A stretch of 64,000 bases of DNA from Zygnema cylindricum (lineage: Eukaryota; Streptophyta; Zygnematophyceae; Zygnematales; Zygnemataceae): contig JBBHKE010000516.1 in the NCBI GenBank assembly GCA_037447655.1, forward strand, positions 219,322 to 283,321. Reading direction: 5' to 3'. Both the position numbers and the translations under genes were made by a program. Under the pieces are notes generated by a model. That model did not search any database and was not told where the DNA came from. It saw only the letters and a list, made by a program, of their open reading frames with translations. This document shows, piece after piece, positions 27,001-57,250 of the stretch (its first letter is position 1; each line of letters starts with the position of its first letter).

Positions 27001-30000
27001 GGAGCCATTCAGGCAGGAAAGGTATTTTCTTAATCCCACTGGGTCAGTAGTAGGTTAATTACACGTACGTGATACGAGCGACAGCATGCCTGTTAGAGTG
27101 TGTAGATAATTCCCCTAGATAGCTGATTACTTAGTTTTGATCATTGAAAAGGATTAAAATTTCTGTTGTTTAGAGAATGTGGTTTAGAGAACTTGTCTGG
27201 ATGAAACTTATGTGAGGAGAGGAGATTAAGATCTGGTGCATGTGAGTAGCACATCAGTGACCCTGGTTTAATCATCAAAGTGAAATAAAGTGACCAGTAG
27301 CACTCGCCCCGGTTTGTTTTCAATTTGGATCAAACCAAATGTTTCAGTTTGAATTCCGCGTTTAATCGCCAGGATTTGAACGCGGCGAGTTTCGAAAGTA
27401 AAGAGCGCTTAAACTTTTTCTTTTTAGTTTAGGTTAAGGAAAAAGGTTAAGAAATTAAAAAACCTAAACTCAGTTGAAGAATTTACGAACTAAACGTTTC
27501 AGGTGAAGTAGTCGAACCAGTTCAACCGTTCACCTGTTTTTTTTGAGCAATGAAAAACTCCCCGTATCTGGCCCGGCCCACCAGCCCTGTTTCACTCTGT
27601 CCCTCCCCCTCGCCTCCACACCTGTATCTTCCTGTGCATCCGTACATAGGTTTAACCAAGTTTGGGTGCGCCGAACCGAACCAATTGGTTTCTGGGATTG
27701 CTCGAACCAAACTGATAAAGAAGCCTGTCAAACCGTGTGGCAAAAAAACGTTTTATCGATTTGAATCAGTTTCATCCCAAACCGGGCTGAGTGCTAGTTA
27801 CTAGAGAAAAAGCTGGAAAGAAATGGTTCAAATTTTCATGTATGACCTTGGAACAAATGCTGGCCTTATTGTTGTTCTAATATATGTCTTTAAAACAAAT
27901 TTTGGCATTAATCATCAGATTCCTAAGTATCCAGAAAAATCCTGACCACGTATGGCTTAATGTTGTCTTCTTTCAGAAGTTTTTGAAGTCTAATTTGACC
28001 AATGGAGTGTTGGAGGAGAGTGACAGAGCATTTTGGTGGAGCCTACAAGTGGAAATACTGGTATTGGACTTGCTTTTATCGCTGCTGCAAAGGGGTACAA
28101 ATTGATTTTAACGATGCCGGCTTCTATGAGTTTGGAACGTCGAATTCTTCTTCGAGCTTTCGGGGCAGAGCTTATTCTCACTGATCCCTCCAAAGGCATG
28201 AAGGGAGCTGTCTTAAAAGCAGAGGAAATTGTGAAAAAGACACCTAACTCCTACATGCTACAACAGTTTGAGAATCCAGCAAATCCCAAGGTGAGTTTTA
28301 GAGCTGGGTATTTTAAAGGAATTTTCTTAGACGTTCCTGTTGGGAAGAAGAAAAAATACAAATCTATTTCCATGTTTCAAGGCTGGCAGTGGTGAAATGC
28401 ATCCTTGTGAATTTTGCATATTTAAGGGAGTTGTGTTTTCTGGTCATTTTTCGGTTCAGGAAGAGGTGTATCAAAGTTTAAAAAATATTTTCCTGGTGGG
28501 TCTATATGTTATTTTCTACACCTTCACTTTGACCTTGACCTGGACCTTAACTTGAACTTCAAATTCCAGTCTTTGAATCAACTCGGATTTTAACCTTTCT
28601 CTCTCCCCTCCCCCTTCTTTTCCCCCCCTTTCTCCCCCTCGCCCCCCCCCCCCTCTCTCTCTCCCCCCCCCACGCGCTCTCGCTCTCTCGGCGCCCCCCC
28701 CCCTCTCTCTCCCCCGCCGCGCTCTCCCCCCGCTCTCGCTCCCCTCCCCCCTCTCCCGCCCCCCTCTCCGCTCCCCCCCTCTCTCTCCCCCCCCACTCTC
28801 GCCCCCTCTCTCTCCCCCCCCTCTCTCTCTCCCCCCCTCTCTCTCCTCTCCCTCTCTCCCCTCTCTCTCCCCTCTCTCTCTCTCTCTCTCTCTCTCTCCT
28901 CTCTCTCGTCTCTCTCTCTCTCCTCTCTCTCTCCTCTCTCTCTCTCTCTCTCTCTCTCTCTCCTCTCTCTCTCTCTCTCTCTCTCTCTCTCTCTCTCTCT
29001 CTCCCCTCCCTCCCTCCCTCCCTCCCTCCCCTCCCTCCCTCCCTCCCTCCCTCCTCCCTCCCTCCCTCCCTCCCTCCCTCCCTCCCTCCCCTCCCTCCCT
29101 CCCTTCCTCTCTCCCCCCCTCTCTCTCTCCCTCTCTCTCTCTCCCTCCTCTCTCCTCTCCCCCTCCCTCTCTCTGCTTGTGTGTGTCTCAGGTCCATTTT
29201 GAAACCACAGGTCCGGAGATCTGGGAGGACACTGCTGGGAAAGTGGACATTCTGGTGGCTGGCATTGGAACTGGAGGAACCATCACTGGGGCAGGAGGCT
29301 TCCTCAAGAGCAAGAAGCCAGATTTCAAAGTTGGTAGCCTCTCTCTCTCTCTCTCTCTCTCTCTCCTCTCTCTCTCTCTCTCTCTCTCTCTCCTCTCTCT
29401 CTCTCTCTCCCTCTCTGCCCCCCAAAAGAGCAAGAAGCTAGAGTTTAAGATTGTTAACGGATATGTTCAAGTAAATGCTGGGTTAAGGAGCCCTTTCTTG
29501 TTTACTGCGTTTATGGAATTTTGAATGGTGAAGTTCCTCAGGGATGGCTGCTTTTAGTATATCGGATACTTATCACAGGATTTCTTGAAGTTTATTAAAT
29601 TAAGATCAGAAGGTAGTTTATACGGCTGTCTTGGCTTGTGTCTCTCGTGCCTAATACTTATTCTTTTTTCTTGGGTTGGTTAAATAGGTTGTTTGGTGTC
29701 GAGCCAACTGAAAGCAACATTCTATCAGGTGGAAAGCCAGGTAAGAACCTTTATCGTCTATAATAATGTTGCAAGGTCATGATTCGTTGTGTCACTTCTG
29801 TTTTTTTTTGTAATCCTGAATTTAAAATGCTGTTCTTTCTATGGAAACAGTTGGGAAGTCAATAGGGCTTTAATTATGCAGATTAACAAGCTGTGGTGCT
29901 TTTCCATGTTCTGGCCAGAGTTGTGATTCTTTTTCCTACCTAAAAAAGGAAAGAGAAAAGGAAAGAAAATGTCAATTTTTTGTCTTCCTGATAATGGATG

Positions 30001-57250: not shown

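What the first reader, a model, noticed from the sequence alone, without database searches (positions are those of the whole stretch)
28000..54720. Splice junctions as seeds of tandem duplication across unrelated genes
In the cysteine synthase and glucosidase genes, introns contain extra copies of their own exon edges with the adjoining splice site: E5 end (cysteine synthase), E3 start, E9 end, E11 start, E12 end and start, E16 end (glucosidase). Copy number runs from one extra to about eleven, with periods from 26 to 165 bp. The copies are always next to the parental junction and often separated by CT/GA microsatellite. This is seen directly. I infer a local process that repeatedly copies segments spanning exon-intron borders, lengthening introns and creating decoy sites. 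Intron gain by tandem duplication of AGGT-containing segments is a known model; arrays of this density would be a striking case.
Basis: partly seen in the sequence, partly recalled or inferred. Interest (0 to 1): 0.9.

Follow-up and report, generated by a model that had tools for sequence, protein, structure and literature searches.

The report
Splice-junction minisatellites in plant gene
Several introns of a plant-lineage glucosidase gene contain decaying tandem copies of the edges of their own exons; the copies are real and resemble arrays described in lancelets, but nothing here shows that splice junctions themselves trigger the copying.

Summary
I modelled four genes: GCS1 glucosidase (GH63), two cysteine synthases (OASTL) and DMC1. 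Three are multi-unit arrays in GCS1 (units about 27, 42-91 and 161-175 bp); four are single extra copies. A later 2.2-kb tandem duplication doubled three GCS1 exons; its two copies differ by two 42-bp array units, so that array has changed length.

The inference is only partly supported. Local duplications are as common elsewhere in the window: junctions 7/80, random intron points 81/600, intergenic points 72/600. An event-based test gives 7 of 29 families against 2.9 expected (P=0.02), or 5.1 (P=0.24) if exon-edge copies stay detectable twice as long; nearly all the excess is in GCS1. Outside GCS1 it is 1 of 50. Intronic exon-edge copies show no extra conservation, and no intron gain is shown. 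The genome could not be reached.

The structures match the 'mirage' minisatellites of amphioxus, here in a streptophyte: a new, unusually dense member of a known kind.

The parts
39400..55088 (-). GCS1 (mannosyl-oligosaccharide glucosidase, GH63), exons E2 to E16; tentative E1 at 57100-56963; 3' exons not found in the window
   Evidence: 15 exons with AG/GT borders join into one open frame of 527 codons; 48-53% identical to seven homologues along its length; tblastn
54681..54705 (-). one extra copy of the E3 start (parent junction 54574), a CT-rich tract between the copies
   Evidence: score 39; family 54556-54705
50135..50320 (-). array of 7 intronic copies, 24-28 bp apart, of the E8 end (parent junction 50321)
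   Evidence: GT kept in 3 of 7
48681..49182 (-). array of 9 intronic copies, 42-91 bp apart, of the E10 start (parent junction 48680)
48066..48150 (-). one decayed extra copy of most of E11, including its start (parent junction 47952), 178 bp away
47494..47844 (-). E11-end array, two intronic units of about 165 bp (parent junction 47845); cut by the edge of the 2.2-kb duplication
42479..43352 (-). E11-end array after the E11 copy of block B: 5 units, two of them inside block B and three beyond its edge
47494..49683 (-). block A of the 2.2-kb tandem duplication: E9, E10 and E11, intact
42996..47497 (-). block B: degenerate copy of E9-E11 (97.2% identical to A in aligned columns), E9 copy frameshifted, interrupted by a DNA transposon
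44221..46660 (.). hAT-like insert in block B: inverted ends TAGTGTTGTGTATCGG, 8-bp target duplication ATAATTAC; transposase not searched for
   Evidence: that 8-bp duplications are typical of hAT is recalled
39585..39628 (-). one extra copy of the E15 end (parent junction 39719), GA-rich DNA between
29426..29456 (+). one extra copy of the OASTL E5 end (parent exon end 29328), CT tract between
24052..32179 (+). cysteine synthase (OASTL_P) with an N-terminal extension that looks like a transit peptide (by eye), 10 exons, 18 junctions examined
5749..13269 (-). second cysteine synthase (OASTL_M), lacks the middle exons; control gene, 10 junctions, 0 copies
36230..38963 (+). DMC1, 11 exons, 3' exons not found in the window; control gene, 22 junctions, 0 copies

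Best explanation
These are 'mirage'-type minisatellites: ordinary local tandem duplications that happened to include an exon edge, some of which then grew into arrays by slippage or unequal crossing-over. Shown: the copies; that the exon is the source at four of the six GCS1 junctions; that one array differs by two whole units between two copies of the same block; and that local duplications are as dense at random intron and intergenic positions. Inferred: duplications inside an exon are removed by selection, whereas one that straddles an exon edge leaves one intact junction and puts the extra copy in the intron, where it is tolerated and decays. The intronic copies are most likely unused decoys. 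CT/GA tracts may help start some duplications (3 of 7 cases).
For: Seven of 80 junctions carry a spanning local copy, none with reversed neighbourhoods. Background is similar or higher: 81/600 intron points, 72/600 intergenic points, 83/500 in a second intergenic sample. 22 of 29 independent local families contain no junction. Exon edges at E3, E11 and E15 are shared with homologues. Intronic copies of the E11 end are as variable in the exon-derived 23 nt (0.853 identity) as in the upstream intron part (0.877). Blocks A and B are 97.2% identical in aligned columns and differ by 84 bp, two 42-bp units, in the E10-start array. Amphioxus mirages have the same anatomy and similar unit sizes.
Against: My account does not fully explain that excess, though the gene was singled out because of it. 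Point controls inside GCS1 introns (155/600) include points within the arrays themselves, which inflates that figure; the intergenic control does not have this fault.
Confidence: 0.72

Rival explanations
1. Junction-seeded duplication: a local process preferentially copies segments that span exon-intron borders, so splice junctions act as seeds.
Against: Per position, junctions are not enriched (7/80 against 72/600 intergenic, Fisher P=0.46). Only 1 of 50 junctions outside GCS1, fewer than the intergenic rate predicts (P=0.013).
Confidence: 0.15
2. Intron birth or growth by the AGGT tandem-duplication model: units carrying AG/GT make or extend introns, and copies act as alternative splice sites.
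For: E8-end units carry AG|GT and begin inside the exon; all 7 intronic E11-end copies keep GT.
Against: E9, the exon after the E8-end array, begins AAAG, not GT. GT is lost in 4 of 7 E8-end copies. No extra conservation of the exon-derived part among E11-end copies. No relative's gene structure was available to show that any intron is new.
Confidence: 0.05
3. Assembly artefact: collapsed or chimeric assembly made the arrays.
For: The 3' exons of both GCS1 and DMC1 were not found where the genes face each other, so a misjoin near 38963-39400 is possible. Three neighbouring 42-bp units of the E10-start array are identical over the 38 bases compared, so their number could be miscounted by an assembler.
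Against: Intronic units of the E11-end array have diverged (0.64-0.92 identity in the five pairs compared), and block B has its own frameshift and a transposon with a target duplication, which misassembly would not create.
Confidence: 0.04
4. For the E10-start array only, compatible with the main reading elsewhere: the intronic minisatellite came first and the acceptor was later recruited from one unit, so that the exon edge comes from the array.
For: The first residues of E10 (VGSDKIK) lie in a stretch that is variable among homologues.
Against: Does not apply to E3, E11 or E15, whose edges are shared with homologues.
Confidence: 0.3

Closest known systems
'Mirage' minisatellites of amphioxus (globins BflGb6 and BflGb9, Adh3, TnC, PGBD5)
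   Same: [quoted passage not shown] units 10-72 bp (Adh3) and 150-160 bp (globins); many but not all units keep AG/GT; BflGb6 units 81-100% identical; variable array length (PMC3087553, section 16 read; PMC3902484, one passage).
   Different: Here in a streptophyte; six junctions of one gene; units partly more diverged; no RNA or population data, so normal splicing and present-day instability are not shown.
Potato RdRp intron gain by a tandem duplication crossing an intron-exon boundary
   Same: A duplicated segment made of an intron end and an exon start in a plant gene (PMC4974935, passages).
   Different: There a new intron is described; here none is, and arrays have up to nine extra copies.
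Internal tandem repeats at exon-intron boundaries of human genes in segmental duplications
   Same: Minisatellite units, on average 30 bp repeated 4 times, altering gene structure, some at a boundary (PMC2812944, passages).
   Different: There transcripts with altered structure are reported; here no transcripts.

Membership tests
Mirage minisatellite | Tandem repeat whose unit spans an exon-intron boundary | tested here: met
   7 of 80 junctions
Mirage minisatellite | Several units in tandem | tested here: met
   E8 end, E10 start, E11 end; not met for the four single-copy cases
Mirage minisatellite | Both 5' and 3' exon edges affected | tested here: met
   3 starts and 4 ends
Mirage minisatellite | Array length instability | tested here: inconclusive
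   two-unit (84 bp) difference between blocks A and B shows past change; alleles or tissues not available
Mirage minisatellite | Does not disturb normal splicing | not testable with these tools
   no RNA data; the model without copies is one open frame
AGGT tandem-duplication intron gain | Intron absent from relatives and made of the duplicated segment | not testable with these tools
   no relative's gene structure available
AGGT tandem-duplication intron gain | Downstream exon continues from the GT of the duplicated AGGT | tested here: not met
   E9 begins AAAG after the E8-end array; only this array was checked
Introner elements | Similar sequence making introns in many genes | tested here: inconclusive
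   in the self-comparison of the window, matches of 70 bp or more of the E10-start and E11-end arrays lie within GCS1 only; genome not available

The most novel reading that the evidence does not exclude
In this plant lineage, as in lancelets, a mutational process captures exon-intron junctions more often than chance, making mirage arrays a recurrent, lineage-wide source of intron growth and latent splice sites, with GCS1 as a hot spot.
Probability: 0.13. Interest if true: 0.75.

Novelty: new member of a known kind. Interest (0 to 1): 0.42.

Why it matters
Arrays of splice junctions are a proposed raw material for intron gain and new exons. The multi-unit arrays that I found in print under the name 'mirage' are from lancelets; a dense case in a streptophyte would show that they also arise outside animals. 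Because one gene holds several arrays, an intact block and a degenerate copy of it, much of the order of events can be read directly: E11-end array first, then the 2.2-kb duplication, then (order unknown) a change in E10-start array length and a transposon insertion in block B.

Tried and rejected
Rejected: junction-specific enrichment as established; extra conservation of decoy sites; assembly artefact as the main source of the arrays.

Led nowhere: the host genome could not be searched, so there is no genome-wide test. Ten literature searches cover open-licence papers only; I judged them from titles and abstract starts, apart from the five papers opened, and saw no multi-unit junction array in a plant there; two searches returned no paper.

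Dropped before counting: four of 33 families (three inside or next to block B that repeat block A families, and the interior of the transposon). The 80 junctions leave out tentative E1, an unplaced short stretch between E6 and E7, and all 3' exons of GCS1 and DMC1.

Full report
What is there. The window is nuclear DNA of a plant-lineage organism. The glucosidase is GCS1, mannosyl-oligosaccharide glucosidase (best structure match 5mhf, with an early rough assembly). Among the 120 best of 4586 listed relatives the top ones are from Marchantia, Riccia, mosses, Chara and Klebsormidium, at 45-50% identity, so this is a streptophyte that I cannot place further. I placed 15 GCS1 exons on the minus strand (55088-39400), all with AG/GT borders, joining into 527 codons without a stop and aligned along their length with seven homologues, six from named plants or algae. 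A 23-residue stretch between E6 and E7 and about 200 C-terminal residues of the homologues have no exon in my model. Controls are two cysteine synthase genes (24052-32179 plus, 13269-5749 minus) and DMC1 (36230-38963 plus).

Check of the observation. For each of 80 junctions I took 40 bp on each side and looked within 1.5 kb for a copy covering at least 12 exon bases and 2 intron bases, leaving out low-complexity matches. Against reversed neighbourhoods it was 0 of 80. The five settings (one of them the main one) gave 8, 7, 5, 9 and 7 of 80, with 107, 83, 88, 82 and 87 of 500 intergenic points.

Anatomy. E8 end: eight units of about 27 bp counting the exon's own, which is its last 26 bases plus GT; 4 of 7 intronic units have lost GT. 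E10 start: nine intronic units; three successive 42-bp units are identical over the 38 bases shown. E11 end: units of 161-175 bp; all seven intronic copies keep GT. E11 start, E3 start, E15 end and OASTL E5 end have one extra copy each. In three of these (E3, E15, OASTL E5) a CT- or GA-rich tract lies between the copies, and in the E15 and E11-start copies the splice dinucleotide is gone (sequence).

Source and age. Residues at E3 start, E11 start, E11 end and E15 end are shared with homologues, so the exon is the source there; E8 end is only moderately conserved; E10 start lies partly in a variable stretch, so its direction is uncertain; OASTL E5 end was not compared with homologues beyond the structure search. 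A 2190-bp block with E9-E11 is duplicated in tandem (A 47494-49683, B 42996-47497). B carries a frameshift in its E9 copy, changes at two residues invariant (W and P), and a 2440-bp hAT-like insert with an 8-bp target duplication. With the insert left out, A and B are 97.2% identical in 2039 aligned columns; A has 84 bp more in the E10-start array, two units, and there are five smaller gaps of 6-36 bp. In the E11-end array one pair of corresponding units in A and B is 0.957 identical, more than the five pairs of intronic units compared within a block (0.64 to 0.92); the other A-B pair is 0.795 because one member is cut by the block edge. So the E11-end array is older than the block duplication.

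Is it more than background? By position: junctions 7/80, intron points 81/600, GCS1 intron points 155/600, OASTL_P 45/600, OASTL_M 78/600, DMC1 0/600, intergenic 72/600, exon points 25/600 (score 32 or more). Junctions are not enriched (Fisher P=0.46 and 0.29); outside GCS1, 1 of 50 is fewer than the intergenic rate predicts (P=0.013), as selection against damage to exons would predict. GCS1's 6 of 30 is not above the intergenic rate with confidence (P=0.14). By event: 33 local families, 29 after dropping four derived ones; 7 include a junction, expected 2.9 (P=0.022), or 5.1 (P=0.24) if junction copies, one side of which is held by selection, remain detectable twice as long. With the shortest-unit measure the figures are 2.4 (P=0.009) and 4.3 (P=0.14). 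GCS1 alone: 6 of 8, expected 1.5 (0 of 1500 simulations; P=0.0013 with the shortest unit) or 2.5 (P=0.008); OASTL_P 1 of 5, expected 0.5; OASTL_M 0 of 5, expected 0.4. The two tests disagree for GCS1. I take this as a hint, not a result: the gene was singled out because of the pattern, and the other genes do not show it.

Function. Among intronic copies of the E11 end, the exon-derived 23 nt are 0.853 identical, the upstream intron part 0.877, the following intron part 0.727. Nothing suggests that copies are kept for use. GT is invariant there, but two positions in seven copies carry little weight.

Comparison with what is known. Amphioxus globin, Adh3, troponin C and PGBD5 genes have 'mirages', tandem repeats spanning exon-intron boundaries: units of 10-72 bp (Adh3), 150-160 bp (globins), 60 and 108 bp (PGBD5), at both exon edges, with AG/GT in many units, variable copy number and, as far as tested there, no disturbance of splicing (PMC3087553, section 16 read in full; PMC3902484, one passage). 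A two-copy plant example that made an intron is known in potato (PMC4974935, passages), and a review calls tandem duplication the only mechanism of intron gain demonstrated in vivo (PMC3443670, passages). The structure here meets the anatomical features of mirages that I could test; intron gain is not shown.

Limits. No genome, RNA, reads or relatives' gene structures were available. The OASTL_P E5 end has no GT where the frame needs it (nearest GT one base on), so that junction may hold a sequence error or a real lesion.

Noticed in passing
38963-39400: DMC1 (plus) and GCS1 (minus) face each other and the 3' exons of both were not found in the window; a rearrangement breakpoint or an assembly misjoin is possible.
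   Followed up: partly
44221-46660; also 18562-19455, 59861-60224: A hAT-like DNA transposon family with ends TAGTGTTGTGTATCGG; the copy at 44221 has an 8-bp target duplication, the copy at 18562-19455 a 7-of-8 match (GCAAAATG/GCGAAATG), the one at 59861-60224 more diverged ends.
   Followed up: partly
5749-13269: The second cysteine synthase, in inverted orientation to the first, lacks the middle exons and looks like a pseudogene or a partly deleted copy.
   Followed up: partly
29328-29331: The cysteine synthase E5 end has no GT at the position that keeps the reading frame, in the parent or in the copy.
   Followed up: partly
4807-5008 and 55341-55542: A dispersed repeat, 79% identical over 202 bp, one copy beside OASTL_M and one upstream of GCS1 E2.
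   Followed up: no
63238-63894: Open frame resembling the RNase H part of a copia-type retrotransposon (resemblance recalled, not searched; frame).
   Followed up: no
17461-17935: Intergenic 49-bp tandem array of about 8 units, an example of such arrays away from the four gene models.
   Followed up: no
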